Shown: piece by piece, positions 862 to 64,000 of the stretch
Position numbering within the stretch: position 1 is the first letter of the stretch
Layout: each line of letters begins with the position of its first letter
Source: Yponomeuta sedellus
Taxonomy: Eukaryota; Arthropoda; Insecta; Lepidoptera; Yponomeutidae
DNA: 64,000 nt
Reading direction: 5' to 3'
Assembly (NCBI GenBank): GCA_934045075.1
Contig: OW203723.1
Coordinates: 21,157,615 to 21,221,614, forward strand
Notes under the pieces: generated by a model
Database searches by the model: none
The model's input: the letters and a program-made list of their open reading frames with translations, nothing else
What the model was told of the DNA's origin: nothing
Made by a program: the position numbers and the translations under genes

Positions 862-943
862 TCATCATCATCAACCCATTATGTCCCCACCGTGGGGCAC
901 GGGTCTCTTCCCTAAGGAATATATAGGCCATACTCAATTTAAA
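862..943 (+). repeat. Family B retroposon fragment
   Basis: Contains the hallmark ccattatgtccccaccgtgg...cacgggtctcttccct...ggccatact, shared with more than a dozen other places in the window (for example 11.4, 12.6, 21.4, 29.6, 41.5 and 48.2 kb). Confidence 0.7.
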
Positions 944-944
944 T

Positions 945-1551
945 TTCAATTCAATTTATTTCAACGTAAAGAATTTACATTCTGTTTGCTGAATGTCAAA
1001 GTACAATGTAACATGAAAGTGAAAGCCGCCGCCTTCGGGCCGTAATGTAGTGGAGAAAAAGGCAGCGGGAAAAAAAACTCCACTCTGACCATCTTTTCTC
1101 AAGTCTTAAATCTAATACATTAGATAACACCTATACGCATAAGATTCCATGATTGCCATTAATAACTTTAAATGTTAAGGCATTATTAAATATATATACT
1201 TTTTTACATAGGCCGTGAAAACATGACAAGTGCTGCGGCCAGACACACGAACAGCACTCGTTCACACGACAGCATAACGCAGAGGTCAGCCATCATCAGT
1301 CTCAACCATTTTGGAGGGAGATAGATGACCCGGCCACCACGCCACCATTCGAATGACCTTTAGCAAACCTGCAGATTAAGTTTTTGTCAGTTATAGAATG
1401 TATGATATATTTACTAATATGCAATCACGTCGTCTGTACAAACTTAAATTAAAATATGACATACATAACTAACACTGAGGATTGCAGTGATTCGGTTGCT
1501 ACATATAAAATATTTATTTAATAACTATGATTTACTCGTTGTGGAATTGGT
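945..1551 (-). mobile_element. 3' untranslated tail of the 1-5 kb LINE
   Basis: Downstream of the LINE stop codon at 1552, read on the minus strand. It ends in the A/T-simple motif gaaataaattgaattgaaat at about 945-965, a typical short-repeat LINE 3' terminus. No ORF. The family B fragment begins directly beyond it. Confidence 0.6.
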
Positions 1552-5466: not shown

Positions 5467-5565
5467 TAACATCATTCAAAGTACTTAACACGTCATCCAG
5501 TTTCCTGCCTGCAATGTAGACCAATCATCACCACCGCTATCGGATCTAGAAGGTTAATTATTATA

Positions 5566-19448: not shown

Positions 19449-19718
19449 GTATGTATGTATGTATGTATGTATGTATGTATGTATGTATGTATGTATGTAT
19501 GTATGTATGTATGTATGTATGTATGTATGTATGTATGTATGTATGTATGTATGTATGTATGTATGTATGTATGTATGTATGTATGTATGTATGTATGTAT
19601 GTATGTATGTATGTATGTATGTATGTATGTATGTATGTATGTATGTATGTATGTATGTATGTATGTATGTATGTATGTATGTATGTATGAATGTATGTAT
19701 GTATGTATGTATGTATGT
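19449..19718 (+). repeat. (TATG)n microsatellite, about 270 bp
   Basis: About 67 near-perfect tetranucleotide units with one variant (gaat) at about 19689. All three frames stay open, which creates false ORFs of Met-Tyr-Val-Cys repeats. Confidence 0.97.
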
Positions 19719-48094: not shown

Positions 48095-48335
48095 TTTATT
48101 AAGGCACGTTAAGCCGTTGGTACCGGCTGTCATATAGGTAATGGCAGTCGTTAAGCCATGTCAGAGGCCTTATGGACGGCTTGATAACTTCTGACAGTAA
48201 AGCCCGCCACTGTCTTACAATCCTCATCCAACCCGGACTTGGCCCCCGTGGTGGAGTATGGCCTAACCTTCCTGCGATGCAGGAAGAGACCCGTGCCCCA
48301 GCAGTGGGGACATACAAGGGTTGATAACGATGACA
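48095..48335 (-). repeat. Family B retroposon copy
   Basis: Reversed blocks: gcacgttaagccgttggtac, aatggcagtcgttaagccat, gtggtggagtatggcctaac, ccagcagtggggacatacaa. Confidence 0.75.
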
Positions 48336-48369
48336 CTTTATTTATATTAAGGTATCTCGGTTTTACTAA

Positions 48370-50129: not shown

Positions 50130-50336
50130 CATCGAATTTACATCCAAAATTTACCAATTATCATTATTGCATTGTTCGAGAATGAAAAAACACGTCAATA
50201 AAAACCCCCGGGAAGTTGTGGATTCGTGTACCCAGTGAAATTAACATACGAAAAACTTGGCTGAAACTCGCCAAAAGAGACCCCGACTCTTTATCAATTG
50301 AAACTCGAGTGTATTTATATGAAGATCACTTTGATG
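50130..50336 (+). pseudogene. Decayed THAP-domain exon
   Basis: The frame around 50162-50336 shows the THAP pattern: HYCIVRE, then a TGA at 50183-50185 exactly where the second zinc Cys is expected, then KTPGKLWIRVPSE, TWLKLAKRDPDSL and VYLYEDHFD. The usual third Cys (before EDHF) is Tyr. The conserved His is kept. The coding match ends at GAT followed by gtaagt, a consensus splice donor, so this looks like a former internal or first exon. Two of four zinc ligands are lost, so it cannot be a working THAP zinc finger. The source could be a host THAP gene or a P-element-type transposase. Confidence 0.65.
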
Positions 50337-50622
50337 TAAGTCCTATAATAATCAATGTCCACTGGCTTTGGCTGAGAGATGTTTGTTTACATAATTTAGA
50401 TGGTTTCAAGATGGCGAATAGCGTTTTCGTCGTTACGAATTAAAACTACCTCACCCACTTTTGAGATTTCCCTCATTTTTTGCATTATTACTTCACATTT
50501 CGACTAGACCCGACTATTTTTACCAGCTTATTCTGTTTTTATCCATTTTTCTGTTTATATTATAAGTAAAATAAACAAACACATTTAAGTAAAGCACAAA
50601 GATGAAGTCGTTCAGTAGGATG

Positions 50623-50736
50623 TTATTGGGCATTCTGGACCAGCTTCCATTCGTTTGAGCTCACGACGCACCGCGCCGGTTGGCGCGGCTTGTCGTTCAC
50701 TCAAACTCATTACATCTGTTCCAGAATACCCAATAA
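50623..50736. repeat. Fold-back repeat upstream of the Polinton-like genes
   Basis: Arms ttattgggcattctggacca and its complement in tgttccagaatacccaataa, with a second inverted pair inside (cgtttgag/ctcaaac and the gcgccggttggcgc palindrome). Probably a MITE; it is a candidate edge of the viral element. Confidence 0.6.
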
Positions 50737-50868
50737 TATTGATTGATTCTGAATTTTACTTGCGGCAGGAAATGAAATGATGTTAGTAACACAGATAAAT
50801 ACTGAAGTTTAATCGTGATGATCGCATTTCAGTAATGAGGACATCACTGGTAACATATTTCTCCAAAA

Positions 50869-51558
50869 ATGAAATTTGTTAAACAACCTACATCACTAAA
50901 TCTTGAGAATATTGATGTAGGATCTGAAAAAAATACATATCGTCACGGAAAGCTTTTACCAAACACCATCCGTTGTATAGTTTGCGGACCGTCTAACTGC
51001 GGAAAAACAAACTTAGTCCTTGGGTTACTTTTACATCCTAATGGTTTACATTTCCGTAACGTGTACGTTTATTCGAAAACGTTGTATCAACCAAAATACA
51101 TATTTTTAGAGAAGGTAATGAATCTCGTTCCAGGAATACGTTATTATAAATATCGCGATAACAAAGAAGTCTTAAATCCAAGCTTAGCGTCTCAAAATTC
51201 TGTCATTATTTTCGACGATGTTGCCTGTGAAAATCAAAATAACATTCGTGATTACTTTGCCATGGGTAGACATAAAAATATAGACTGTTTTTATTTGAAC
51301 CAAACTTATAGCAAAGTCCCAAAACAACTGGTTCGCGACAATGCAAATCTACTCATCATATTCAAACAGGATGATATTAACTTACGTCATATTTATGATG
51401 AACATGTGAACACTGATATGCCTTGGCATCAATTTCGCGAACTTTGTTCACAAGTTTGGAAAGATACATTTAGCTATTTAGTGATTAATAAAGACTGTCA
51501 AAGAAATAACGGATGCTACAGAATGAAATTCGACACCTTTATTACTTTCGACGAGTGA
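50869..51558 (+). CDS. Polinton/adintovirus packaging ATPase (FtsK-HerA, A32-like)
   Basis: Genome-packaging ATPase of 229 residues, the usual size for the family. Walker A is GPSNCGKTN at residues 40-48 and Walker B is SVIIFDDVA with acidic D116/D117. A sensor-like Asn/Gln is in FYLNQTYSKVP (residues 141-151), followed by R155 in a position typical of an Arg finger. In relatives it pumps DNA into a preformed capsid. It is the first plus-strand gene of the element. The 80-bp gap to the next ORF and the AATAAA after that ORF (52589) suggest that the two share a transcript. The frame is intact. Confidence 0.93.
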   Translation: MKFVKQPTSLNLENIDVGSEKNTYRHGKLLPNTIRCIVCGPSNCGKTNLVLGLLLHPNGLHFRNVYVYSKTLYQPKYIFLEKVMNLVPGIRYYKYRDNKEVLNPSLASQNSVIIFDDVACENQNNIRDYFAMGRHKNIDCFYLNQTYSKVPKQLVRDNANLLIIFKQDDINLRHIYDEHVNTDMPWHQFRELCSQVWKDTFSYLVINKDCQRNNGCYRMKFDTFITFDE

Positions 51559-51639
51559 GATACATAAATGCCGTTTTTTTTAAATCAGAAGCCACTTTCT
51601 TATCTTCTTTATATGCGAGTAGTTGTAAAATAAGAAAAA

Positions 51640-52584
51640 ATGTGTGATGAAAAATCAATTAAACAACAAATAATTAAGTCTGCTGAGGCTGTTAAAAAGA
51701 AGGTTCAAAACATGAAAAATACTAAAATGGATTCTGAGTTGGCATTAGAAACTATGTTCAAACCAGTAACAGATCCACTTAAACAGCTAACGAGAACCCC
51801 GTATCAAGAACAGTTAAGTAATGAAGATGTTGATTCGCTTGAACATTTAGCACGACAGTCTACACCTACGAAGAAACGAAAATTTTCTGAAATTAGCTCT
51901 TCAAGGGAATCACTCCAAGAGGTATCGAATGCTAGTAACAGCGATGATAACATAAGTGACTCTGAACTGAATCAAAGTCTTAGAAATAACATGAGTGACA
52001 TATTTTTTGAAACAAATTCGGATGGTGCTTCAACACCAAATGCAAAGTCTTTATCGTCATGGTCTTTATCATCAGAAGTATTCAAAGATGTACCTTATGG
52101 AATTAGATTGGAAAATGGAAAACCTATGATAGGATCAGCACCGCTCTCCATAACTAATGATGCATTTGAAATAGCAGGTCATTCGTATGTCAAAACTAAT
52201 GGACTCAGTGAATTACTTTACAAAAAAAATCCTGATCTAAACATTATCACTGAAGATGATAAAAGGAATTATAAATTTATACTAATAAGCACAAACGCTC
52301 ATCGACGTAAATATGATCCCAATCAACCAATCAATAGCAACAGAGGATTTAAGTATTTACAAATTGTAAAACCCTTATTATGTTCCGCCAATGTTTCCAA
52401 AGGAAAGGGTTTATCATTGCTTAAAAAAGTTGATAACAAAGTAGATTACATTTTTTGGAATGATCCAAACGAATTAGTTGAAACATTGAAATTATTAATA
52501 GCTTCGAAAGATGCCGGTAATACTGGCTTAGATGATGAAATTGTATCAGTTTTAACAGAACTGAAAAAACGTGGTGTGATATAA
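51640..52584 (+). CDS. Conserved Polinton-associated protein, function unknown
   Basis: 314 residues in two parts. Residues 1-150 are charged, Ser-rich and low-complexity, with a basic KKRKF patch at 78-82 that could act in nuclear import. Residues about 150-314 look folded: PYGIRLENGKPMIG, TNGLSELLYKKNPDL, ILISTNAHRRKY and the C-terminal AGNTGLDDEIVSVLTEL. I recognise this C-terminal pattern from insect Maverick/Polinton elements, where it lies near the ATPase and integrase. Its role is not established; minor virion or DNA-binding protein is a guess. A polyadenylation signal AATAAA lies at 52589-52594. Confidence 0.8.
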   Translation: MCDEKSIKQQIIKSAEAVKKKVQNMKNTKMDSELALETMFKPVTDPLKQLTRTPYQEQLSNEDVDSLEHLARQSTPTKKRKFSEISSSRESLQEVSNASNSDDNISDSELNQSLRNNMSDIFFETNSDGASTPNAKSLSSWSLSSEVFKDVPYGIRLENGKPMIGSAPLSITNDAFEIAGHSYVKTNGLSELLYKKNPDLNIITEDDKRNYKFILISTNAHRRKYDPNQPINSNRGFKYLQIVKPLLCSANVSKGKGLSLLKKVDNKVDYIFWNDPNELVETLKLLIASKDAGNTGLDDEIVSVLTELKKRGVI

Positions 52585-52652
52585 AATGAATAAATACTTA
52601 TGTAATCTATATTTTATTTTATTTCTACTCTAACCTTCACACTATTTACAAG

Positions 52653-53015
52653 ATGAATATAGATAAATTTGGACATCATGTTCATAAAAGACTGCGTGTG
52701 TCAGATCCATTAAATTTGGTTCCTATAAACACAGGGCTAAGTAAAAATGAGTCAGGAGTTTACGACTTAAAACAATGTATATTGAGAGGATTACCGTTAG
52801 CTGTAGCAGCAGATGAAGCTGTTAGCAAGGAGTATGTAGAAAAAAACAATAAATTATATTGTAAAAAACAAGATTTCATTAATGAACTTAAAAGTATAAA
52901 AACTCAAATACAACTGCTACAGAAACAGTTAGATGAGAAGTGTTCAAAGGTAGAAGCGAGTAATATTATTAAAGATCATATAGTAGCACTCAGAGACTCA
53001 TCGAAACCAGCATGA
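52653..53015 (+). CDS. Small coiled-coil protein with fibre-like ADEAVSKEYVE motif
   Basis: 120 residues. Residues 36-62 (YDLKQCILRG... ADEAVSKEYVE) follow the pattern seen where many phage and viral fibres begin (an Asp/Ala-Val-x-Lys-x-Tyr-Val box). Residues 68-106 are heptad-rich (ELKSIKTQIQLLQKQLDEK) and predict a coiled coil. Its stop overlaps the integrase start as ATGA at 53012-53015. Small proteins of this kind occur beside the integrase in insect Polintons. A fibre or capsid-attachment role is inference. Confidence 0.7.
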   Translation: MNIDKFGHHVHKRLRVSDPLNLVPINTGLSKNESGVYDLKQCILRGLPLAVAADEAVSKEYVEKNNKLYCKKQDFINELKSIKTQIQLLQKQLDEKCSKVEASNIIKDHIVALRDSSKPA

Positions 53016-53944
53016 GCAAACAATCTGTTGTAAATGAAATCCATAAAGCAGCTAGAAGAAATTTCCCACGTCGTTCTGTTATTTTAAAAGGGATTGATGA
53101 TTTATGGCAAGCCGATTTGATTGATATGCAAAACTATCAGAAGGTTAACAAAGGATTCAAATTTATTTTAGTAGTCATCGATGCTTTTTCTAAATACGCA
53201 TGGATCGCTCCATTAAAGAATAAAACAAAAACTGAGGTGTCTCTAGCGTTTGATAAGGTTTTACAAGAAGGCCGATCACCTGCTAATTTACAAACCGACA
53301 AGGGTACCGAATTTCACAATGACGTTTTTCAGAAGCTTACGAACCGATGGAAAATAAATCATTATTCAACTTATTCAACAAAAAAAGCGTCTATAGTAGA
53401 AAGATTAATAAGAACTTTGAAGAGCAAGTTGTTTAAACATTTTAGCTTGTTTGGAAATTATAAGTGGATTGGAGAACCTTTATGTGATATAGTTAAGAGC
53501 TATAATAATACTATGCATCGCACTACAAAACATATGCCGTCTGAAATAAACAAGTTAAATGAATCACTCGTTGCATGTAATATAAACAAATCACAACCTT
53601 CCTTACCTGCAAAGAAAATTAAATTTCGTGTTGGAGACTTTGTCCGTATCAGCAAGCACAAAGGAGATTTTCAAAAAGGATATACACCAAACTGGTCTAC
53701 CGAATTATTCACTGTTGTAAAAGTAATAAAATCTATACCCACAACATATTACATACGAGATCAACATTGTATACCAATAAAAGGTTGTTTTTACGAACAC
53801 GAACTGCAAAAAACTAGCTGTCCCAATATTTATTTAGTTGAGAAGGTAATTAAAAAAAAGGGAAACAAATATCTTGTTAAATGGCTCGGCTTAGGTCAAG
53901 AGGAAAATAGTTGGATTAATAAAAGTGCTATAATAAAGCATTGA
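53012..53944 (+). CDS. Retrovirus-type integrase with C-terminal chromodomain (Polinton INT)
   Basis: DDE recombinase that would insert the element into host DNA. The catalytic triad is visible: D35 (WQADLID), D96 (LQTDKGTEFHN) and E130 (SIVERLIRTLK), with 33 residues between the last two. The canonical N-terminal HHCC zinc module is not visible. After the core comes an SH3-like basic part (FRVGDFVRISKHKGDF, about 205-220), and the last 40 residues form a chromodomain (YLVEKVIKKKGNKYLVKWLG). Chromodomains on integrases are known to steer insertion to modified chromatin. The start overlaps the upstream stop by ATGA. The frame is intact. Confidence 0.93.
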   Translation: MSKQSVVNEIHKAARRNFPRRSVILKGIDDLWQADLIDMQNYQKVNKGFKFILVVIDAFSKYAWIAPLKNKTKTEVSLAFDKVLQEGRSPANLQTDKGTEFHNDVFQKLTNRWKINHYSTYSTKKASIVERLIRTLKSKLFKHFSLFGNYKWIGEPLCDIVKSYNNTMHRTTKHMPSEINKLNESLVACNINKSQPSLPAKKIKFRVGDFVRISKHKGDFQKGYTPNWSTELFTVVKVIKSIPTTYYIRDQHCIPIKGCFYEHELQKTSCPNIYLVEKVIKKKGNKYLVKWLGLGQEENSWINKSAIIKH

Positions 53945-53993
53945 AGTATATTACTACAGATTAGTTAACTTATTTTTCATTACATCGTTAGTT

Positions 53994-54722
53994 ATGAAAG
54001 GGAAAGGACTTCTCAATACTTTAATCAATAATTTACCAATAGAGTTACACTTACCAGGCTACAACTACTGCGGTCCAGGTACTCGATTACAAGAACGTTT
54101 GCAAAGAGGCGATAAAGGCATAAACCCTTTGGACAGCGCTTGTATGCTGCACGACATAGCTTATTCAAAGTATTCAAGTTTAGAAGATCGGCATAAGGCT
54201 GACTTAGAGCTAAGAAAGATGGCAAAGCAACGATTAAAATCAGAAGATGCTAGCAGAGGTGAAAAAGTTGCATCATGGTTGGTGAATAAAGTAATGAAAG
54301 CAAAAATTAAATCGGGTGCTGGAATTAAATCATTCAAAACTTCTATGGCTAAATTAAAATCGCATCTGAAAAAAAAGAAACCTAAAAATATTCAAGATGC
54401 TATTCAGTTTGCATACTTAGCAGCAAAAAAAATATTTCATAAGAAAAATAATATGAAGCTGCCAAGAATTATTCCCATCCCTAAAACTGGAGGAATACTT
54501 CCACTCATTCCTATTTTTGCTGGTCTATCAGCATTGGGTTCTTTAGCTGGAGGTATTGGTGGAATAGCAAAAGCAGTTAATGATTACAAGTCAGCCCAAA
54601 AAAATCTTTCTGAATCCGTGCGTCACAATAAAATGATGGAATCGATCTCCTTAGGCAAAGGTTTATACATCAAACCATACAAGACAGGTAAGGGATTGTG
54701 CGTACATTCTTCAAAAAACTAG
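53994..54722 (+). CDS. Phospholipase A2-like minor virion protein
   Basis: 242 residues. The N-terminal part is a secreted/parvovirus-type PLA2: calcium-loop sequence YCGPGT at 25-30 and catalytic HD at 53-54 in CMLHDIAYS. The middle is strongly basic (KSHLKKKKPKN, about 122-132). Residues 163-195 are hydrophobic and Gly-rich (GGILPLIPIFAGLSALGSLA), fit to enter a membrane. GKGL-type motifs recur at the N terminus (residues 3-6) and at the C terminus (221-224, 232-235). In parvoviruses and adintoviruses the PLA2 opens the endosomal membrane during entry; this role is carried over by homology. The next gene starts inside its last 25 bases. Confidence 0.88.
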   Translation: MKGKGLLNTLINNLPIELHLPGYNYCGPGTRLQERLQRGDKGINPLDSACMLHDIAYSKYSSLEDRHKADLELRKMAKQRLKSEDASRGEKVASWLVNKVMKAKIKSGAGIKSFKTSMAKLKSHLKKKKPKNIQDAIQFAYLAAKKIFHKKNNMKLPRIIPIPKTGGILPLIPIFAGLSALGSLAGGIGGIAKAVNDYKSAQKNLSESVRHNKMMESISLGKGLYIKPYKTGKGLCVHSSKN

Positions 54723-55093
54723 TTAAAAGGTTACCCAGACGAGCACTGAGTAATATAGATTTAATATATTATACTCGGGACATCCCATACTTTCGAGGTG
54801 TCTATATGAGAGACACTTTACCAAGCAAATCAAATAACATCGAGTGCGCTATCCTGAATCTAGATAATTCAATAAATCCGGGAACTCACTGGGTAGCCTA
54901 CATTAAGATAAATAATTACAGCGTGTACTTTGATAGTTATGGTTTAAAACCACCTGTAGAATTAATCAAGTACTTAACAAAAAACACTAACGTTTATTAT
55001 AGTTATATGAACTATCAACAAAACAACACCTATAATTGCGGTCATTTATGCATAAAATTTTTAAAAACATTCTGGTTGAAACATTTATATTAA
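54698..55093 (+). CDS. Adenain-type virion maturation cysteine protease
   Basis: 131 residues. It has the adenovirus-protease/Ulp1 arrangement: catalytic His64 in NPGTHWVAY, acidic Asp79 in VYFDSYGLKPP, a Gln pair at 107-108 for the oxyanion hole, and nucleophile Cys114 in YNCGHLC. Length and order agree with Polinton proteases, which cleave capsid precursors. The ATG at 54698 lies inside the end of the PLA2 gene in another frame. The Arg/Lys-rich first 16 residues may bind DNA, the known cofactor of adenain. The frame is intact. Confidence 0.92.
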   Translation: MRTFFKKLVKRLPRRALSNIDLIYYTRDIPYFRGVYMRDTLPSKSNNIECAILNLDNSINPGTHWVAYIKINNYSVYFDSYGLKPPVELIKYLTKNTNVYYSYMNYQQNNTYNCGHLCIKFLKTFWLKHLY

Positions 55094-55124
55094 GAAATCA
55101 TAAACTATTCTCACCATTATTACG

Positions 55125-55796
55125 ATGTCATTCACGCTATCAATAACCGGTTGTAAACCAGCTTTGTCAACATTTTATTCGCCGGCTCTGCAGCTTGATG
55201 GTGAATATGAATGTGGGCTGATCTTTTTTTCGACGTTTAATTCGATTCCTAACATAGAATGCTACAACAACAAATTTCATTATGGCGACAACGAAATGAT
55301 TGAAATACCCGAAGGATCATACGAGCTATTAGATATAAATGACTTTTTAAAAACAAATTTAGTAGACTGTACGTTTAATTTGATATGTAACAATAACACT
55401 TTGAGCACAAAAATAATTTGTTCAAAAGATATTCATTTTGAGAAATCCGGTTCAATCGGAAGGATATTGGGTTTTGGAAATCAGACTCTTAAAGCTAATA
55501 TATTACATGAGTCTCTCTTCCCTGTAAACATTCTACCAACAACCATCGTTCGAATAGAATGTGATATCGTGAGCGGATCGTACATAAATGGGAAGCCTAG
55601 CCATATAATTTACGAATTTGCACCTAATGTACCGCCAGGGTACAGGATTATAGAAATCCCAAAAAATTTGATATATTTCCCAGTAAATCAAAATACAGTT
55701 AGCGAGATTAATATAAGGATTTTGGATGCAAATAACAACCTTATAAATCTACGACAAGAAGAACTACAGTTATATTTACACCTAAGACGAAAATGA
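55125..55796 (+). CDS. Penton-like (single jelly-roll) minor capsid protein
   Basis: 223 residues, rich in beta-strand patterns and without basic stretches until the last few residues. The start MSFTLSITGCKPALSTFYSP and the mid-section GRILGFGNQTLKA match what I know of Polinton/adintovirus penton proteins, and its place next to the major capsid gene is the usual one. It would form the capsid vertices. Its TGA overlaps the start of the 48-residue gene as ATGA (55793-55796). Assignment is by pattern and context, without a structure search. Confidence 0.8.
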   Translation: MSFTLSITGCKPALSTFYSPALQLDGEYECGLIFFSTFNSIPNIECYNNKFHYGDNEMIEIPEGSYELLDINDFLKTNLVDCTFNLICNNNTLSTKIICSKDIHFEKSGSIGRILGFGNQTLKANILHESLFPVNILPTTIVRIECDIVSGSYINGKPSHIIYEFAPNVPPGYRIIEIPKNLIYFPVNQNTVSEINIRILDANNNLINLRQEELQLYLHLRRK

Positions 55797-55939
55797 TAGA
55801 TTTCATAAATAAAACATTGGTACCCAAAACCAAAGATCTCAGTACAACACATCCACCGCAACAGAAACCACCTGCTAAAAAGAAAAAACTGACTAAGGAA
55901 AATAAACAATTTCTCAGATACTTAAAAGTCATAAAATGA
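55793..55939 (+). CDS. 48-residue basic protein between penton and major capsid genes
   Basis: A complete small ORF that is easy to miss. It starts at the ATG overlapping the penton stop (ATGA at 55793) and ends at a TGA overlapping the major-capsid ATG (ATGA at 55936). The protein begins MIDFINKTLVPKTKDL, has a Pro-rich then Lys-rich middle (KPPAKKKKLTKENKQFLRYL) and is strongly basic at its C-terminal half. The exact tiling with both neighbours argues that it is real. A small DNA-condensing core protein or a capsid cement peptide is possible; neither is shown. Confidence 0.8.
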   Translation: MIDFINKTLVPKTKDLSTTHPPQQKPPAKKKKLTKENKQFLRYLKVIK

Positions 55940-57150
55940 ATATCTTAAATATCTTGGATTCTTTCGCCTACGACAACAGCATTGAAAGCTACCAAATCCA
56001 TTCGTATAAGCCCTACATTAATAGTTTTAACAAAAACGATGAAATACGCATTCCCATCAATCAACAAGACTTATACGTCTTACCGTCACAGAGTACACTA
56101 TACATCGAAGGTTCTATCACAGTGCACCGTCCAAATGGCGATAAAAAAGAGAGAGTGAGTAATATTGAGTTGGTGAATAATGCAGCGCTTTTTCTTTTCC
56201 AAGACATTCGATATGAACTAAATGGCGTAGAAATTGATAGGATAAAAAATGCTGGGATCACAACTACTATTAAATCATTGCTCTCGATGAATGAAAATGA
56301 ATCAAAAATGTCACGGCTATGGGGGTGGGACATTGATGGAATAAAAAATACTACTGGTAATTTTTCCGCCTGTATCCCATTGAATAAAGTTTTAGGTTTC
56401 GCTGAAGATTATAATAAAATAATAATGAACTGTAAACATGAGCTGGTTCTTTTGCGTAGTAATACAAACCTTAATTCTATTAAATTAACCACTAATGAAG
56501 TGTTAGATGACATAACCATTAACAAAATTGTATGGAGAGTACCGCATATAAAAGTATCTGATCGTGAAAGAGTTAACTTGCTGAGATGTTTGGAGAAAGA
56601 TAGACCTATCAGTTTAGCATTTAGGAATTGGGATCTCTATGAATACCCTCTTTTACCACAGACTACAAAACATACTTGGTCTATAAAAACCACATCTCAA
56701 TTAGAGAAACCACGTTATGTGATTATTGGTTTACAAACTAATCGGAAAAGTTTAGGTATGAAAGACATGTCTCACTTTGATCATTGTTATGTACGTGATG
56801 TCAAGGTTTTTTTAAATTCAACTTACTTTCCATATGAAAGTCTCAATATTAAGTTTACTGAAGAAAGGTATATGATATTATATGAGCAGTACGCTAGATT
56901 CCAACAGTCTTACTATGGACGTCGGTGTGAGCCGTTGTTAAATCTGAAGGATTTCAAAGATAAAGCACCATTATTTGTAATAGATTGCTGCAGGCAAAAT
57001 GAGACCCTGAAGACAGGTCCCATTGATGTTAGAGTAGAAATAGAGAGTGATTTAGAAATACCAGATCAAACTTCTGCTTACTGCCTCATACTAAACGATT
57101 GTGTAATCGAATATAAACCACTTTCTAACATCGTTAAAAAAATAACATGA
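55936..57150 (+). CDS. Major capsid protein (double jelly-roll, hexon-like)
   Basis: 404 residues. It starts MNILNILDSFAYDNSIESYQ, continues with the N-terminal strand pattern EIRIPINQQDLYVLPSQSTL and includes LFLFQDIRYELNGVEIDR, which I recognise from Polinton/adintovirus-type major capsid proteins. Size is somewhat below adenovirus hexon, as expected for this group. It would build the icosahedral shell with the penton-like protein. It is joined to the genes on both sides by ATGA overlaps. The frame is intact. Confidence 0.85.
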   Translation: MNILNILDSFAYDNSIESYQIHSYKPYINSFNKNDEIRIPINQQDLYVLPSQSTLYIEGSITVHRPNGDKKERVSNIELVNNAALFLFQDIRYELNGVEIDRIKNAGITTTIKSLLSMNENESKMSRLWGWDIDGIKNTTGNFSACIPLNKVLGFAEDYNKIIMNCKHELVLLRSNTNLNSIKLTTNEVLDDITINKIVWRVPHIKVSDRERVNLLRCLEKDRPISLAFRNWDLYEYPLLPQTTKHTWSIKTTSQLEKPRYVIIGLQTNRKSLGMKDMSHFDHCYVRDVKVFLNSTYFPYESLNIKFTEERYMILYEQYARFQQSYYGRRCEPLLNLKDFKDKAPLFVIDCCRQNETLKTGPIDVRVEIESDLEIPDQTSAYCLILNDCVIEYKPLSNIVKKIT

Positions 57151-57635
57151 ATTCTGAACATATTTTTGTAGATTTACAAGGATTTAGAGATTATAAAAAT
57201 AATTTTATTATTAAAGAGTTTGCTCTCGCTACTAAAGAATTTACTATGGTCTACTTGGTAAAACCTCCTTATCCATTTTCTACTTTATCAGATAGCGAAA
57301 AAAAGCAAGTTGTTTGGTTGGAAAAGAATAGAGGAATTTATTGGCGTGAAGGTTTTATTGACTACCGCGAATTTCATAGGTTAATTTATAGTTTATTGAG
57401 GAATAAGAAAATTTTTGTAAAAGGTTTAGAAAAAATCATGTGGGTAAATAAACTTTGTGGTGATTGTTGTGTTATTAATATCGAGGAAAATCAATGTCCT
57501 AATATAAAATACCTGCATGATAAATATAGTGTATGCAATTTTACGTGTTTTTCTCACCACAAACAATGTGCGTTGAAAAATGTACTATGTGTCAAGAAAT
57601 GGTTTTATGAAAATAATGTTATAGAATTTATTTAG
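57147..57635 (+). CDS. Conserved Polinton-associated protein, possible RNase H-fold
   Basis: 162 residues, starting with the ATGA overlap at 57147. It opens HIFVDLQGFRDYKNNFIIKE; an acidic residue on a first strand followed by Gln and a second-strand FALAT recalls exonuclease-type RNase H folds, but the usual DxE pair is not complete. A Cys/His-rich tail (CNFTCFSHHKQCALKNVLC) could bind zinc. I recognise similar proteins in insect Polinton-like loci; the function is unknown. It closes the plus-strand block, with AATAAA at 57677-57682. Confidence 0.7.
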   Translation: MNSEHIFVDLQGFRDYKNNFIIKEFALATKEFTMVYLVKPPYPFSTLSDSEKKQVVWLEKNRGIYWREGFIDYREFHRLIYSLLRNKKIFVKGLEKIMWVNKLCGDCCVINIEENQCPNIKYLHDKYSVCNFTCFSHHKQCALKNVLCVKKWFYENNVIEFI

Positions 57636-57676
57636 AATAAGCAAGTATTTATGTAACTTTTTTATTGAAAGTAAGA

Positions 57677-57682
57677 AATAAA
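57677..57682 (+). terminator. Polyadenylation signal of the plus-strand block
   Basis: AATAAA 42 bases after the stop of the 162-residue gene, facing the signal of the minus-strand gene only 30 bases away. Confidence 0.7.
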
Positions 57683-57711
57683 TGTAAATGTATTTAAAAA
57701 AGAAAACATGT

Positions 57712-57717
57712 TTTATT
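57712..57717 (-). terminator. Polyadenylation signal of the 126-residue minus-strand gene
   Basis: AATAAA on the minus strand, 27 bases past the stop codon at 57744. With the plus-strand signal it makes a tight convergent end. Confidence 0.7.
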
Positions 57718-57743
57718 TAATAAATTTTTAATTTAAAACGAAA

Positions 57744-58214
57744 TTAATAACTATTGCACATATTTTTAGAAATGTTCTTAACTACGTTTTCCACCATGTC
57801 CATTATTTCGTCTACAGGATCTATCACAACATATTGGGCACTTAACACCGCACTTTCACTGTTTGTGTCCTTACACTCATTTAAGTCGAATACTTCTATT
57901 TTTATCAACCGATTTCCTCTTCTTGCCGCCTTGCTAACCACATATGATGTAGACGTGGAGTCCTTTGCAACCCGTTTCCTTGAAGTCTTACTTTTCCGCT
58001 TCCCCACGTCTGATGGAGCCGGGTTTCGTATTTCTTCGACATCACTATCGAACCCACTCAAAATATTTTGCGCGTAGTAGTAAGGGTCAGTCGGATCAGT
58101 CTCGCCTAAAATCTGAAAAAAACAAAAAAAAAAATTATTAAAAATATTCAAACCTATTTCAAACTGTGTAATATAAATTGGATGGAAAAAAATAATGCTT
58201 ACCGAAATCGACAT
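57744..58214 (-). CDS. Small spliced gene, predicted 126 residues, function unknown
   Basis: Exon 1 (58214-58203) codes Met-Ser-Ile-Ser and ends at a consensus donor, tcg|gtaagc. The intron (58202-58113, 90 bases) ends in a long T-rich tract and ttttttcag. Exon 2 (58112-57744) runs in phase to the stop. The unspliced frame is also open, but would add a Phe/Ile-rich stretch coded by the polypyrimidine tract, so splicing is the better model. The protein is acidic at the N terminus (ETDPTDPYYY, FDSDVEE), then has a basic patch GKRKSKTSRKR (nuclear-signal-like), then an acidic C-terminal half. No known domain recognised. The start is close to a tight upstream region without an obvious TATA box. 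Confidence 0.6.
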   Translation of the reverse strand: MSISVSIIFFHPIYITQFEIGLNIFNNFFFCFFQILGETDPTDPYYYAQNILSGFDSDVEEIRNPAPSDVGKRKSKTSRKRVAKDSTSTSYVVSKAARRGNRLIKIEVFDLNECKDTNSESAVLSAQYVVIDPVDEIMDMVENVVKNISKNMCNSY

Positions 58215-59161
58215 GTTTTCACGTCTGCTGATCTTCTAGTTGGCTCGAACGATGCAGTAACAATAAATTATTGAACCACCAAATATAAAATGGATTTGTA
58301 GATGAGTGTAACTTACCTATTCATACGTTTCGATCGCTCTAGAAAATTAATCCTGTCTCTTTTAATACATATAAGAGTGAGCGAGCTCGAATTCGTAGTC
58401 AGCATTATCAATATCGAATGTGTTTGAATCAAGTATGTCATTGCTGACTAAGTAAATAGTAGTCATTGAACCCTTGCGCGCTATGCAACATCGATGCGCC
58501 TCCCTTGCTGTTTGCAACATCGCTAACACCTTGACTTGACCTACTTTTGACTGTCTCGTCGGTCTAGTGATGATAGCGTTTGATTACTATTGCAGAGGTC
58601 GTGGGCTCGATTCCCACAGGGAGCTGTCATACTTTCAGTAGACACGAAATCAAAACTTCATTGAATATAGTTTAGCTCTCCTCATCCCACCGCGCTCAAG
58701 ACTATGTCTATAGCAAAAATTTCTGAGATATGTAGGAACTAACAATACTTACATATTCTTTTGTTTTTGTAACATTAGGTAACAATGTTAGGTCATGGAA
58801 ATAAAAGAAGCTGGTAGTATAACCCAATTTATTCACCCAAAACTATACTTATTAGCTTATAGTACATAACACTTTTATAACTAAGTACCTATCTATTTTA
58901 ATTCATTACATTATTAGTTCACTTAAATAAATACGCTATTCTTAACATACCTAAAGAGCTTTAGCTTTAACTTGAAGAGCATAAGAACGAAAACATAATA
59001 TTAAGCTTATTCCACACTAGCTCTATCGCGGCGGTTACCGCAGCCGCAATCCATACACATAGCATCTAAGACTGAAACAGATCTATGAAATACATCATAT
59101 CACGATATTTTGATTACATATTTTTAAATTTTATCCCATGGTCAATTTTACTATCTTATTT
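58215..59161. other. Non-coding gap of about 0.95 kb inside the element; tRNA-like SINE head
   Basis: No ORF found. 58557-58625 carries gtcggtctagtgatgatagc (box A like) and gtgggctcgattcccacagg (box B), like the family G fragments at 32.2 and 63.4 kb. It either holds promoters for the 126-residue gene or is host DNA/insertion splitting the virus genome. Confidence 0.45.
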
Positions 59162-62100
59162 TCATAATATTGAGGTATGGCCCCACGCTTTAGTTGAGAT
59201 TTGATCCCGATGAATCAAACGTTTATCATCATTTCTCGATAGAGCTATTTTGTTGACACTTTGCGTAAATATTTCATGTTTTATCGATTTAAACAAGATA
59301 TTTCTCTTGCGCAGCACATTACCTTCAAACAAGGTCTGCTCATAATTACTAAAGTTAAGACCGCGAATAACGCTCATTTTTACTCCTTTGGCCTTTTTGA
59401 CAGTTTTTTCTAAAGTTTTGAAACAGTACAGTTTTGATCGTAATCCTACAAATTCTGTAATAATTTCACCACCCATTTCATCCTTAAATAGCCCAGGAAT
59501 CTTTTTGTTTTTTAATGGAATTTGATGTATATTATTACTATCGTAATTACTCGTATCAAAGTAAGGTAGTAAACGGTATTTCAAATCTAGGAAGAAGTCC
59601 TCTGTGGACAAATGATAGATGAAGCTATCCGTATCAGTATAGCACATCTCAACATATTTCCCATACATAGGTTTAATAATTGAATAATGAAAGTCATACA
59701 TGTGGCTTTTGGATAACTCAAGAACAGTAAACCCAATGTAGATAGGTTTATCTAAAACCACACGTTCTGGTTTCATTTGGATGGCAACCAAATTTTCGGA
59801 AAAAACTGAAGCACTGTGAAAGTTTGGACGGGCTATCAATTTTTCTGCCGATGTGCATTTTTTCGTTTTGTTTTGACTATCGCTCCATTGATTTACCAAA
59901 TAGACGTTTACTCTGTGTTCAGTATTTTCTATAGTCTTTCCAAATATGCTGTTGTTCAAGAGTTTGAAAAAGTCTTGTTCGAAAGTTGATTGGGCTTGTT
60001 GCCTCAGTTTTGTATTAAGTTCAATGTATTGTTTGAGATAAACACTTTGACGAAAAGTAATGACTCTATGGATTTTTCTTAGTATTAATCCATGTTTCAA
60101 GCATGTTTTAAGATGCACATAATGAATAACATATCGATATTTATCGTATAGGTTAGGGATTAATTTCGAACTCTTTCCACCGGGTGGTATGCATCGCTCA
60201 GGACAAAATGGGAAATCATTGTGATAGTCGTGTAGGTGTGTAGGATAAATAATATCCACTTCAAGAATATAACCAAAAGATGCATTATCAGGAACTGATG
60301 TGATATCAATGGTATTCACTTCAGACTGTTCCAAAAATCTGAAATCTGACAAAGGTAATACTTGAGACATGCTGAAGCCGTATAAATTGTTAGCATCAAT
60401 ATACGTTATGAAGGACTCGGGACGTGATGGGTCGTACTCAGACATGTATTTATTGTTTGCTTTCGCATGTCGCTTGGAACACATACATACACCACCCCGT
60501 ATTCCATCCTGAATCATCCGAATAATCGCTAAGTCGCTAAGCAATTCTAATCTGACCTTAGTTTTCAAAAGCATCGCATCAAATGATAAGCTGGGTGCTG
60601 TGAGGTAGAATGCCGGGTCTAATTGATAATATCGTTTACATGTTTTGCGGAAATGTTCAAAAATATCGGCTAGTAGCAAGACATCTGTTTTAACGTATAG
60701 ATCAGTGTATTCACCTAAGTTACGAATGGAGAAAGTTGACCATACTGACTTGGCATGTTCATAATCTTGATCAGAAATTTCTTCACCACTGATAGTATTA
60801 TAAAAAGCAGATTTGGGTGGGAGGGAATTTTCTTCGTAGCATTTCCAATGTGACATATAGTCATATGGATAAACACCTTTGCGAGTGAGTAATTTGAGTT
60901 CAGTGTCATTTGCAAAAAATGATTTCAACAACGAGAATTCCTCCACCTTCATTGTTTTCGTGAGTTTTTCTAAACTGGTACCTAAAAATTTAAATGAATC
61001 GATAAATCGAAGTTGGATACCTTCATCTTTCGATAATGGTATATACTTCGTGAAAGAAATATAGTTTTCTTTTGTTTTAGGTATTATTCTAATCGGACCA
61101 GGCGCCTCGCCTAGTTCTTTGATAAATAAATGGCAATCGTAGCCTGACAAATTGTGGAAAACAACTGGAACAAAATTTGGTAGTTTAAATTGTAAATTAC
61201 AATGCTTGTGAGCTGCCCCCCGATAGTGACCAGTGATGTGACAGTGGTCTCGAACCTTGTCAAATATTAAAAGATTATCACAAATATGACAGCGGACAGC
61301 ATTTTCAAAATTTTGTGAATCATTATCCGTGAATATAATTTTAATATTAGCTTTTAAAATAGTGTGTATTTGCTTCATGTCTCGATACAACCATTCTACA
61401 AATTTTGATACACAGTCTGATCCCCGATAGCTGACGTAGCGATTATACTTGGCATCCACTGTACAAACAATATAGTAACCAAACGCTGAGGGCACATGTT
61501 GTTGTAGCAGGCTAGTGCTCGCAATGTTAGGGTCTGCTTCACACCCCAGATGACGTTGAAGCATAGTCTCAAAATCAGCATAAATGATAAAGGGTATGTT
61601 TTGTTTTCGTTCGTAATTCTTAAATTGAAGAACCGACCCTTGGTTAGGAAGAGCTGTAGCAATACCACCACATGCATGAATGACTAGTTCATTAGATGTT
61701 TTAAAAAATAACAGACATGATGAGCAAAAATGCAGTTGCTGATGGTGTTTAGATATTTGGCTTCTAACCAGACGGGGAAGGTTTTTGATCAAACAAAAGT
61801 GAGAGCCCTCATCATTCTCGAGAAATAGCAGATGAACGATATTTTTCGCAGTGGAAGACTCTGATCTGTATAGTGGACCTACAACAGTTTTTTTGCCTTG
61901 TAAGCCATACACAAAAATAGCGATATCTGGATTATTTTTTTCAAACACCGGGATGTCAGAAAAAGTTACTGGATATGATAAGCCTTGAGTGTTAAAAATA
62001 TCGCGAAAATCGGGATAAGACGAGACACGATCGGGGTGGCTCTTTGAAGGGAATAGAGCAGCTGTAACACACCAAAGAAAACAATAAGGATCATCATTTT

Positions 62101-62668
62101 TTATATTCAAACATGCTTTTTTGTTTTTTATAAATTTTGGTAAATCTATAAACGATGACCCACTCAATGGTTGATATTTATTTACATTGATTTCCAAATG
62201 AGAGTTACTCAAAAATGTCCAACCGCTATCTCGCTCTTGAAACTCTTCAAGCTTTTTTTTCAATGTATTTATGATTTCTGAAAAAATGGAATTGAAGTTG
62301 TGGTTCATGTGTATGGTAATGTTTTTCGTGCCAAACGATTTTAGTTCTTGCAAATCGTTTTTGTACATAAGGAAAAATGAAAAAAGCTCAACATTGACTT
62401 TTATGCAAACGTGTTTTTTCAATGAAATATCAATCAGAGATTTTAATTTATTATGGATAGACTCGAAAAAGGTTTCAATTGAGTGCTGACCATCACCGTT
62501 AGCCTGTATCTTATAAGTTGCAATACGATTACGGAATGCAGAGGTCAGAACCTCAACATCTTCTGACAAATGATGAGTTGCGACTTTGCTTTTGTGGTCA
62601 GTGCTGCGCATATGACCCACCCAACTTTTTGGGTTGACAAGAGTTTTGCAAGTAATGCAATAAGGCAT
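59162..62668 (-). CDS. Family B DNA polymerase, protein-primed type (Polinton PolB)
   Basis: 1168 residues, the full length expected. The order is: N-terminal C2H2 finger (C4, C7, H19, H25); ExoI FIIYADFETML (about 358-368); a Cys/His cluster RCHICDNL...DHCHITGHYRGAAH...HCN (about 455-490) resembling an HNH/endonuclease-VII fold; ExoII VVFHNLSGYDCHLF (about 500); ExoIII YVKTDVLLLADIF (about 655); motif A TYIDANNLYGFSM (about 755); motif B LLNNSIFGKTIEN (about 900); and motif C CYTDTDSF (about 1008). All catalytic acids are present, so proofreading and polymerisation could both be intact. Such polymerases copy linear viral genomes from a protein primer at the terminal repeats. It is divergent to the capsid block. 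Confidence 0.95.
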   Translation of the reverse strand: MPYCITCKTLVNPKSWVGHMRSTDHKSKVATHHLSEDVEVLTSAFRNRIATYKIQANGDGQHSIETFFESIHNKLKSLIDISLKKHVCIKVNVELFSFFLMYKNDLQELKSFGTKNITIHMNHNFNSIFSEIINTLKKKLEEFQERDSGWTFLSNSHLEINVNKYQPLSGSSFIDLPKFIKNKKACLNIKNDDPYCFLWCVTAALFPSKSHPDRVSSYPDFRDIFNTQGLSYPVTFSDIPVFEKNNPDIAIFVYGLQGKKTVVGPLYRSESSTAKNIVHLLFLENDEGSHFCLIKNLPRLVRSQISKHHQQLHFCSSCLLFFKTSNELVIHACGGIATALPNQGSVLQFKNYERKQNIPFIIYADFETMLQRHLGCEADPNIASTSLLQQHVPSAFGYYIVCTVDAKYNRYVSYRGSDCVSKFVEWLYRDMKQIHTILKANIKIIFTDNDSQNFENAVRCHICDNLLIFDKVRDHCHITGHYRGAAHKHCNLQFKLPNFVPVVFHNLSGYDCHLFIKELGEAPGPIRIIPKTKENYISFTKYIPLSKDEGIQLRFIDSFKFLGTSLEKLTKTMKVEEFSLLKSFFANDTELKLLTRKGVYPYDYMSHWKCYEENSLPPKSAFYNTISGEEISDQDYEHAKSVWSTFSIRNLGEYTDLYVKTDVLLLADIFEHFRKTCKRYYQLDPAFYLTAPSLSFDAMLLKTKVRLELLSDLAIIRMIQDGIRGGVCMCSKRHAKANNKYMSEYDPSRPESFITYIDANNLYGFSMSQVLPLSDFRFLEQSEVNTIDITSVPDNASFGYILEVDIIYPTHLHDYHNDFPFCPERCIPPGGKSSKLIPNLYDKYRYVIHYVHLKTCLKHGLILRKIHRVITFRQSVYLKQYIELNTKLRQQAQSTFEQDFFKLLNNSIFGKTIENTEHRVNVYLVNQWSDSQNKTKKCTSAEKLIARPNFHSASVFSENLVAIQMKPERVVLDKPIYIGFTVLELSKSHMYDFHYSIIKPMYGKYVEMCYTDTDSFIYHLSTEDFFLDLKYRLLPYFDTSNYDSNNIHQIPLKNKKIPGLFKDEMGGEIITEFVGLRSKLYCFKTLEKTVKKAKGVKMSVIRGLNFSNYEQTLFEGNVLRKRNILFKSIKHEIFTQSVNKIALSRNDDKRLIHRDQISTKAWGHTSIL

Positions 62669-62762
62669 TGTAAATAAAAAGTAGTAAGATTGACCAGGAA
62701 ACAGATAATTAAAATTTAGGTTTTAGACACAAAAATAAATAGGTAAGTAGCAAAATAATATG

Positions 62763-62768
62763 TTTATT
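62763..62768 (-). terminator. Polyadenylation signal of the minus-strand terminal exon
   Basis: AATAAA on the minus strand, 17 bases past the stop at 62785 and about 95 bases before the polymerase start. Confidence 0.6.
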
Positions 62769-62784
62769 ATAAATTAAAGGAATT

Positions 62785-63160
62785 TTATTTTATATTTATC
62801 TTATCACTAAAAAAACTCGCCTCACTATTATCATACAGTGAATAAACTTGTTTAATAAATTTCTGTAATACGTCCCAGTGCGGTGTGTCCGTATCAGTCT
62901 GCAATTTTATTACCATCAACGCTTTTTTCCACCTCTCTTGAACGTTGGTACTTGCAGCATCGGTAGTGTTGTAGACCTTCAATTCTATATAGAATTCTCC
63001 TTCCGTCGTTGCTGTCCGACGAACGTGACCATTGGCGACCCGCGTCACTAGACTCGACCCCAGTTGGTGCTGCTCGGGAGTCGCTTTAGCGACCTTCTCT
63101 GCGTCTCGCAAAATCCCGAAAAGATCTCCCACCGTCTTTTTCTTTAAGGTGCTTGCAGAC
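62785..63160 (-). CDS. Terminal exon of a spliced gene of unknown function
   Basis: The exon begins after a good acceptor, cacttttacag|gtctgcaag (ctg at 63161-63163 on plus), and is open for about 124 codons to the stop at 62785. It reads TLKKKTVGDLFGILRDAEKV and later ERWKKALMVIKLQTDTDTPH. No ATG exists in the exon before GTG 63132, which supports an upstream exon that I could not locate. No domain recognised. A nearby AATAAA and the 95-bp spacing to PolB make it look like part of the compact element, but a host gene is possible. Confidence 0.5.
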
Positions 63161-63625
63161 CTGTAAAAGTGAACAATATATTTTAAAACATAAGTACCTT
63201 CATAAACTTATACCTATATTCCGATTGGGTAGGCTATCTATAGGAGATACACATACATTGAACGAGTATGAAGTGGATGATAGTTTAATATGAAGGGTAC
63301 ATATCTACTTTTGATCTATCCCATATATGTCATTCTTAATAAGCAAATATCCCAAGTGATTCTTAATAAGCATATCTTACATGGAAAACAAAAATACTAC
63401 GCGAAGCGGGTATCGAACCCACGACTAGTAAGATGCAAAGTAAACAGTCGACAGCATGTTAACCTTTACGAGTACATGCCTGCAATGTAATCAACGATTC
63501 AATGACTCAGCGGTGTGCTAGAGTCAAATGACGCGACAACGTAACAACGAATAATATAACGAGACTAATTCTATTCCAGTAAACTTTTCCCTGGATGTAA
63601 ACATTTACCGTAACGATCAATGTTA
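63161..63625. other. No gene seen; tRNA-like SINE fragment at about 63395-63480
   Basis: cgaagcgggtatcgaaccca (box B reversed) and gttaacctttacgagtacat. An upstream exon for the preceding gene may hide here. Confidence 0.4.
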
Positions 63626-63833
63626 AGCCGGGTCCGCTGCGCCATGTTACGCGTGTTACAAAAAATGTAACACGTTATTAAAACAAAAATGGGGAGTGGT
63701 ATTAACACTTTACGTGTTACGTAACGTAACGTTATATAACAAGTACCTAACGTGTTATACCATGTCCCACTTTTATTATATTTAAGTGTTACGTTTTTTG
63801 TAACACGCGTAACATGGTGCAGCGGCCCCGGCT
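63626..63833. mobile_element. MITE with TTA duplication, 208 bp
   Basis: Inverted ends agccgggtccgctgcgccat and, reversed, agccggggccgctgcaccat, extending through gttacgcgtgttacaaaaaa. Flanked by TTA at 63623-63625 and 63834-63836. The interior is filled with further gtgttac/gtaacac inversions. Non-coding. Confidence 0.8.
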
Positions 63834-64000
63834 TTAGGCTATAGAAAATAAGGTTTAAGGGTCAAACCTATGGTTTGAATTATTAAGACGAATAAACAAC
63901 TTTTAGTTATGAAACAAACAAATAAACAGTTGTTATCTCTTTCAATGTTCCAAGATTTTCATCAACAGCTTGATTACATCGAGGGAATCGTCATTTGAAA

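What the first reader, a model, noticed from the sequence alone, without database searches (positions are those of the whole stretch)
50869..63160. Apparently intact endogenous Maverick/Polinton (adintovirus-like) genome
Ten plus-strand and three minus-strand genes lie in 12.3 kb. The set has every hallmark (PolB, integrase, packaging ATPase, adenain protease, penton-like and major-capsid-like proteins, PLA2), and all are uninterrupted with catalytic residues visible. Old genomic viral copies are normally broken. This one looks recently acquired or still functional, unlike the two LINEs in the same window, which both carry disabling changes.
Basis: partly seen in the sequence, partly recalled or inferred. 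Interest (0 to 1): 0.92.

Follow-up and report, generated by a model that had tools for sequence, protein, structure and literature searches.

The report
Recently multiplied virus-like Maverick in moth
A complete virus-like jumping element that encodes its own capsid sits in this moth genome among at least a hundred nearly identical copies, so it spread recently and is not an old viral fossil.

Summary
The genes are real, and the reading as an intact Maverick/Polinton (adintovirus-type) holds, but the coordinates do not. Comparing copies across the window's own assembly places the element at 50614 to 67013 (16.4 kb), so 3,013 bp lie beyond the window. It has terminal inverted repeats (82 bp perfect) and a 6-bp target-site duplication, perfect in 7 of 7 copies with both ends read. 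Structure searches support a double-jelly-roll capsid protein and a penton. At least 103 places carry an identical capsid protein, on 14 contigs (103 scored of 396 candidates). Twenty random copies of these plus this one differ at 8 sites in 4,262 bp, without indels: mostly 10^4 to 10^5 generations old, mutation rate recalled. At least two more Maverick families with open PolB frames share the genome. Some copies carry a stop or, by spacing, lack PolB wholly or partly. In this family and both sister families the protease frame is coding-constrained upstream of any AUG and overlaps PLA2 in the -1 register; a canonical slippery heptamer lies there in 2 of 3, suggesting a frameshift-made PLA2-protease fusion. 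The kind is known in moths (Sf Maverick 2, Spodoptera moth adintovirus 1); the recent mass amplification of capsid-encoding copies is the surprising part.

The parts
50608..50613 (.). left 6-bp target-site duplication of this copy
   Evidence: same 6 bp follow the right terminus outside the window
50614..50768 (+). left terminal inverted repeat, about 155 bp, first 82 perfect; an imperfect palindrome/hairpin lies within it
   Evidence: sharp homology break in 10 of 10 copies; comparison with right terminus at window coordinate 67013, outside the window
50869..51558 (+). packaging ATPase (A32/FtsK-like), 229 aa
   Evidence: Pfam Pox_A32 1.5e-6; Walker A and B strings present
51640..52584 (+). 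ORF2, 314 aa, unknown function
   Evidence: open ORF; no Pfam match above cut-off
52653..53015 (+). 120-aa ORF, stop overlaps integrase start (ATGA)
53012..53944 (+). rve integrase with C-terminal chromodomain, 310 aa
   Evidence: Pfam rve and Chromo; D35, D96, E130
53994..54722 (+). PLA2 (parvovirus VP1-like) minor capsid protein, 242 aa
   Evidence: Pfam Phospholip_A2_4 2.1e-15; Ca loop and HD active-site strings
54713..54719 (+). candidate -1 frameshift heptamer A AAA AAC directly before the PLA2 stop
   Evidence: canonical in 2 of 3 families
54692..55093 (+). adenain-type cysteine protease frame (stop to stop), no AUG upstream of residue about 39
   Evidence: Pfam Peptidase_C5 0.002, below cut-off; H, D, Q, C strings
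55125..55796 (+). penton (single jelly roll), 223 aa
   Evidence: 191 homologues, none of the 120 listed with an informative name; model pLDDT 80.9 matches mavirus penton 6g41 first, E 4.3e-8, TM-score 0.41
55793..55939 (+). 48-aa basic ORF, ATGA junctions on both sides
   Evidence: counterparts of 42 and 46 aa in two sister families
55936..57150 (+). major capsid protein (hexon), double jelly roll, 404 aa
57147..57635 (+). ORF8, 162 aa, unknown
   Evidence: one of nine copies aligned carries a 1-bp gap in it
57744..58214 (-). two-exon gene (exon 1 58203-58214, exon 2 57744-58112), about 126 aa, lysine-rich
   Evidence: GTAAGC donor and T-rich CAG acceptor; splicing inferred, not shown
59162..62668 (-). 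[quoted passage not shown]
   Evidence: motifs, alignment, 85% identical over its full length to a Plutella xylostella protein
62785..63160 (-). last exon of a probable spliced gene whose upstream exon lies outside the window (about 64057-64173)
   Evidence: the block 62670-63160 has at least 40 identical copies; splice signals

Best explanation
This is a complete Maverick/Polinton of the lepidopteran adintovirus (Eupolintoviridae) type, 16.4 kb, of which the window holds the left 13.4 kb. It belongs to a family that multiplied to at least 103 copies in this genome (a moth, by its named relatives), most of them within roughly the last 10^4 to 10^5 generations. Shown: termini, TSDs, gene set, folds, copy number floor and near-identity. 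Inferred from the known family: the protein-primed PolB copies the linear DNA, the chromodomain integrase inserts it with a 6-bp duplication, and the ATPase, protease, PLA2, penton and capsid proteins build a particle able to carry it. Also inferred: protease is made mainly as a -1 frameshift extension of the PLA2 protein. Whether new copies arise inside the nucleus or by re-infection is not resolved.
For: The same left terminus in 10 of 10 copies examined; right terminus found in 7 of those 10; TSD perfect in 7 of 7. MCP: 103 of 103 scored places 100% identical in protein, none with a stop, on 14 contigs (396 candidates, so a floor, biased to the best). Middle 4,262 bp: 8 variable sites and no indels in 21 copies. 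Folds. Layout equals Sf Maverick 2, read in passages of PMC5803895. Two further families have the same gene order in the stretch read.
Against: Of 40 right-block copies, six are internally deleted by spacing. One of five fetched PolB pieces has an internal stop. One of the nine copies (C10:18013361) is clearly more diverged: 7 private changes there and 13 in its right 4.4 kb, so not everything dates from one burst. The protease has no AUG at its start and its Pfam score is below cut-off. The window copy carries about ten times more private changes per base than the 20 sampled copies (counted against fewer copies outside the middle piece, so perhaps too high). No virion, transcript or present-day transposition is shown.
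Confidence: 0.9

Rival explanations
1. The copies came mostly by repeated germline infection with a circulating virus, not by copying inside the genome.
For: The virion genes are kept open in this copy and the capsid gene in 103 of 103 scored places; several related proteins sit on assembled contigs of 14-15 kb; horizontal transfer of Mavericks per copy is the highest of the subfamilies compared in Noctuidae, on 3 events (PMC10298559, passages).
Against: Internally deleted copies exist, two with the same 936-bp spacing, which fits movement in trans inside the genome, though a deleted genome could also be packaged; no free virus was seen.
Confidence: 0.3
2. The identical copies are an assembly artefact or recent segmental duplications, not separate insertions.
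For: Very high identity of 16-kb repeats can mislead assembly; one copy examined runs into an N gap near its right end.
Against: Seven copies with both ends read have different flanks and different perfect TSDs; homology stops sharply at the left terminus in all ten; copies differ by private substitutions.
Confidence: 0.03
3. The protease is started at a non-AUG codon or by splicing, not by a -1 frameshift from PLA2.
For: Near-cognate codons lie in the protease frame (ATT, GTG or CTG); the heptamer is not canonical in one of three families (A AAA ATC); the two sister families have an in-frame AUG nearer the start than the window's, giving 110-112 aa; the RNA fold downstream is only moderately stable (z -1.2 to -2.0).
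Against: In all three families the PLA2 and protease frames overlap in the -1 register; the twelve-codon segment before any AUG is coding-constrained (variable columns 3, 2, 9 by codon position) and no AUG precedes it; in two families A AAA AAC ends directly before the PLA2 stop or one codon before it.
Confidence: 0.4

Closest known systems
Sf Maverick 2 of Spodoptera frugiperda (PMC5803895; passages read)
   Same: Order ATP, ORF2, INT, PLA2 protein (CAP), PRO, ORF6, ORF7, ORF8 and PolB on the opposite strand; sizes close (for example ORF7 404 aa, INT 310 aa, PolB 1162 aa).
   Different: 70% identical in the capsid protein (P0029, named S. frugiperda ORF 7; which of the two Sf Mavericks it is was not shown). 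The main text holds no 'terminal inverted' or 'inverted repeat'; TSDs and genome copy number were not looked up there. That paper lists ORF7 without an identifiable domain; here it matches the double-jelly-roll capsid protein. An extra 120-aa ORF stands before INT here.
Spodoptera moth adintovirus 1 (name from nr; P0028)
   Same: Hexon 70% identical over the full length.
   Different: Only the hexon was compared; its genome was not available here.
Vertebrate Mavericks (PMC8097293; passages read)
   Same: 'Intact' there means conserved ORFs, TIRs and 6-bp TSDs, as here.
   Different: There the median is 8 copies per genome, totals reach 287 but in those hosts all are defective, and at most 38 copies are intact in any genome; here at least 103 copies have an open, identical capsid gene (whole-copy intactness was sampled only).
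Adenovirus / mavirus virion modules
   Same: Penton fold (mavirus 6g41, adenovirus penton base) and adenain-type protease.
   Different: Capsid protein far shorter than adenovirus hexon; PLA2 domain protein present; chromodomain integrase.

Membership tests
Maverick/Polinton | protein-primed PolB and rve integrase in one element | tested here: met
   Integrase rve + Chromo; PolB motif residues invariant in an alignment with 13 relatives. Protein priming itself not testable.
Maverick/Polinton | terminal inverted repeats | tested here: met
   82 bp perfect, 121 of the first 126 columns identical
Maverick/Polinton | 6-bp target-site duplication | tested here: met
   7 of 7 copies with both ends read; right ends of 3 of the 10 copies were not found
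Maverick/Polinton | packaging ATPase, adenain-type protease, DJR capsid and penton | tested here: met
   protease by weak Pfam score plus catalytic residues
Adintoviridae (now Eupolintoviridae) | hexon recognisable by BLASTP among members (definition in PMC11071296, passages) | tested here: met
   70% to the protein named hexon of Spodoptera moth adintovirus 1
Adintoviridae (now Eupolintoviridae) | integrase with C-terminal chromodomain | tested here: met
   Chromo 1.3e-6 at residues 276-308 of 310
Adintoviridae (now Eupolintoviridae) | PolB with N-terminal OTU-like domain | tested here: inconclusive
   no Pfam OTU match; no structure was predicted for PolB
Adintoviridae (now Eupolintoviridae) | particles / infectivity | not testable with these tools
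   sequence only
Programmed -1 ribosomal frameshift signal (PLA2 to protease) | slippery heptamer in the zero frame within the overlap | tested here: met
   window and L067 families; the third family (L066) has a non-canonical heptamer
Programmed -1 ribosomal frameshift signal (PLA2 to protease) | stable stem or pseudoknot 5-9 nt downstream | tested here: inconclusive
   z from -1.2 to -2.0 by length, -1.66, window family only; pseudoknots not modelled

The most novel reading that the evidence does not exclude
This moth is in the middle of an invasion by several capsid-encoding Maverick families at once. Virus-like elements with all virion genes open are amplifying like a transposon wave, with PolB-deleted derivatives riding along, and they express their protease through a retrovirus-like -1 frameshift fused to the PLA2 entry protein.
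Probability: 0.3. Interest if true: 0.85.

Novelty: new member of a known kind. Interest (0 to 1): 0.66.

Why it matters
Whether Mavericks in animals are live viruses or transposons has stayed open because, in the survey I read in passages (PMC8097293), most copies are fossils and intact ones are few. A genome with at least a hundred near-identical copies, and open copies of more than one family, makes this testable: look for insertion polymorphism, particles, small RNAs and junction-spanning transcripts in a living insect. Copies with and without PolB, present side by side, could separate copying in trans from infection. The PLA2-protease overlap gives a specific, checkable idea of how the protease could be made, and of how it might be packaged with the entry enzyme.

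Tried and rejected
Looking for TIRs inside the window failed, which first suggested a truncated copy; comparing copies showed that the right end lies outside the window. A tRNA-like stretch in the spacer at about 58.4-58.7 kb looked like a later SINE insertion, which would have aged the copy; it is present in 7 of the 9 copies aligned (the other two diverge before or within that stretch), so it belongs to the element. Three scans of viral contigs found no relative; the prokaryote-genome scan gave only two distant PolB loci in metagenome bins (in L010 an ORF that by eye looks like the protease has its own AUG); the phage collection gave none for the capsid protein. dN/dS against outside relatives was not possible: only their proteins were available. 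Pfam on two spliced predictions gave nothing above cut-off. The number of termini in the genome could not be counted: the pattern search did not complete. The list of 103 stops at contig C15, so it is a floor. Ages depend on a recalled mutation rate of 2.9e-9 per site per generation and on copies picked from the best capsid matches. Rows left out of the age estimate: in the right piece, six of seven copies (only the window's 2 private changes were used), among them C6 with 177 (its end runs into an N gap and is misaligned) and C10 with 13; the nine sequences were not used.

Full report
What is there. Pfam finds a packaging ATPase, an rve integrase with a C-terminal chromodomain, a PLA2 domain, a weak adenain match below the cut-off and a double-jelly-roll capsid protein at E 2.1e-112. 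Two gaps were PolB, for which Pfam gives only a weak endonuclease VII match, and the 'penton', with no match above cut-off. For PolB, the six exonuclease and polymerase motifs are in place with key residues invariant in an alignment with 13 relatives chosen from the 120 listed; the closest named relative, 87% over the searched region and 85% over the full length, is from Plutella xylostella. For the penton, a model (pLDDT 80.9) matches the mavirus penton first (E 4.3e-8, TM-score 0.41, so a moderate match) and adenovirus penton bases next. The capsid model (pLDDT 69.8) matches PBCV-1, faustovirus, mavirus and Sputnik capsid proteins. The tenth plus-strand gene is a 48-aa basic ORF with counterparts in two sister families.

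Where it ends. No long inverted repeat links the two sides inside the window. The window lies in a 657.5-Mb assembly of 57 contigs. I compared ten copies, the window's own and nine others. Homology on the left stops sharply at 50614 in all ten. On the right, in the window copy and five others, it runs past the window end to coordinate 67013. The ends are inverted repeats: 82 bp perfect and 121 of the first 126 columns identical, each forming an imperfect hairpin. The flanking 6 bp are duplicated perfectly in 7 of 7 copies for which both ends were read, the seventh being an internally shortened copy; in the other three the right end was not found in the stretches fetched, one of which runs into an N gap. 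This is the signature of Polinton integration (6-bp TSD, also used as a criterion in PMC8097293, passages read).

How many and how young. A protein search of the own genome with the capsid protein scored 103 of 396 candidates; all 103 are 100% identical with no stop, on 14 contigs. Scoring stops among ties, so 103 is a floor and is biased to the best copies. Twenty copies drawn at random from the other 102 were read over 4,262 bp: with the window copy there are 8 variable sites and no indel; private changes are 4 in the 20 copies and 2 in the window copy. With a recalled rate of 2.9e-9 per site per generation this is about 16,000 generations (95% interval 4,400 to 41,000) for the sample, about 97,000 (31,000 to 225,000) from 5 PolB pieces, and about 160,000 (59,000 to 350,000) for the window copy, which therefore appears older than most; its private changes outside the middle piece were counted against only five to nine other copies, so this may be too high. 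One further copy, C10:18013361, is more diverged still: 7 private changes in the piece and 13 in its right 4.4 kb. Independent of copies, ten open frames over 9,945 bp alone would allow only an upper limit of 0.6 to 1.2 million generations under neutrality.

Not all copies are whole. Of 40 places with an identical right-end block (40 scored of 221 candidates), 32 lie 5,522-5,525 bp from a capsid gene as in the window, one at 5,494, one at 6,083, and six at 936 to 3,079; the spacing means that PolB is partly or wholly missing there, and two share the same spacing. Of five PolB pieces fetched (of the 20 sampled copies; I chose them, and three were already known to have the full spacing), all are full length and one has an internal stop. 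One of the nine copies aligned has a 1-bp gap in ORF8. This is the mix expected of a family that is copying now or was until recently, with neutral decay after insertion.

Other families. A search with a divergent moth PolB (P0352) scored 39 of 416 candidates: 13, 22 and 4 places fall into three classes by matched range and open-frame length; the class of four contains a copy of the window's family. 37 of the 39 scored, which are the best ones, have no internal stop, and 18 of the 22 share one score. Two 3-kb stretches, one from each other class, hold integrase, PLA2, protease, penton and capsid genes in the same order and, against PolB, the same opposite orientation, 59-72% identical to the window's. 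In one of these the penton frame is interrupted.

The protease. Its frame opens at 54692 inside the end of the PLA2 gene, in the -1 register, and has no AUG before about residue 39. Directly before the PLA2 stop stands A AAA AAC in the PLA2 frame; the background of that heptamer in frame is 4 in 3,163 positions, and of any canonical heptamer 29 in 3,163, this site included, over an overlap of about nine positions. In one sister family the same heptamer ends one codon before the stop; in the other the place reads A AAA ATC. In all three families the twelve codons that follow are conserved as protein and vary mostly at third positions (3, 2, 9), with no AUG between them and the preceding stop. 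So the protease frame is probably translated from upstream. A -1 frameshift that makes a PLA2-protease fusion is the most economical account; a non-AUG start remains open. A preprint mentions predicted frameshift sites in adintovirus penton genes and possible hexon-adenain fusions (PMC11071296, passages). The paper search for 'polinton' with 'ribosomal frameshift' returned two papers, of which the other uses the term for another virus (passages).

Spliced genes. On the minus strand, 57744-58214 reads as two exons, and 62785-63160 as the last exon of a gene whose previous exon lies at about 64057-64173, outside the window. Neither has a Pfam match above cut-off. Splicing is inferred from signals only.

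Known or new. The layout equals Sf Maverick 2 (PMC5803895, passages), and the capsid protein is 70% identical to the protein named hexon of Spodoptera moth adintovirus 1. The family is now called Eupolintoviridae (PMC12451622, passages). So the kind is known. What stands out is the number and youth of copies: in the vertebrate survey the median is 8 copies, totals reach 287 in hosts where all are defective, and the most intact copies in one genome is 38 (PMC8097293, passages). In ten noctuid moths the Maverick subfamily was found in five, with a propagation peak put at about 40 million years in S. frugiperda (PMC10298559, passages), unlike here. My nine paper searches listed no report, that I recognised from titles and abstracts, of such a burst in a moth; most listed papers were not opened and subscription papers are not held, so this is weak evidence of absence.

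Noticed in passing
50614-50768 and the right terminus outside the window: Each terminal repeat is itself a long imperfect palindrome that can fold into a hairpin; whether other Polintons share this was not checked.
   Followed up: partly
G000 contig C7: None of the 103 capsid places, the 40 right-block places or the 39 PolB places lies on C7, although its neighbours C5, C6, C8 and C9 have 6-11 capsid places each; if contigs are sorted by size it is about 25 Mb. It might be a sex chromosome. All three lists are capped.
   Followed up: no
53012-53015, 55793-55796, 55936-55939, 57147-57150: Four stop-start overlaps of the form ATGA chain neighbouring genes, as in termination-reinitiation; in the stretches read from two sister families the penton/48-aa overlap is kept in one, and the 48-aa/capsid overlap in neither.
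   Followed up: partly
63625-63834: A 78-bp-arm inverted repeat inside the element's right part, MITE-like.
   Followed up: no
26204-27490 minus: Reverse transcriptase ORF of 428 aa (Pfam RVT_1 1.7e-7) that looks Penelope-like (recalled), apart from two LINE-like reverse transcriptase ORFs at 2202-4325 and 45160-47049.
   Followed up: partly
48101-48365: A short interspersed repeat with ten or more partial copies elsewhere in the window.
   Followed up: partly
19449-19718: GTAT microsatellite of 67 copies, 99% pure.
   Followed up: no
50190-50340: Just left of the element, a stretch whose translation resembles a THAP domain (by eye, recalled, not searched).
   Followed up: no
L010 (Leptospiraceae metagenome bin contig): A distant Polinton-like element (PolB 31%; ORFs that by eye look like integrase with chromodomain, protease and capsid) in a bacterial bin: probably a binned eukaryotic or viral contig.
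   Followed up: partly
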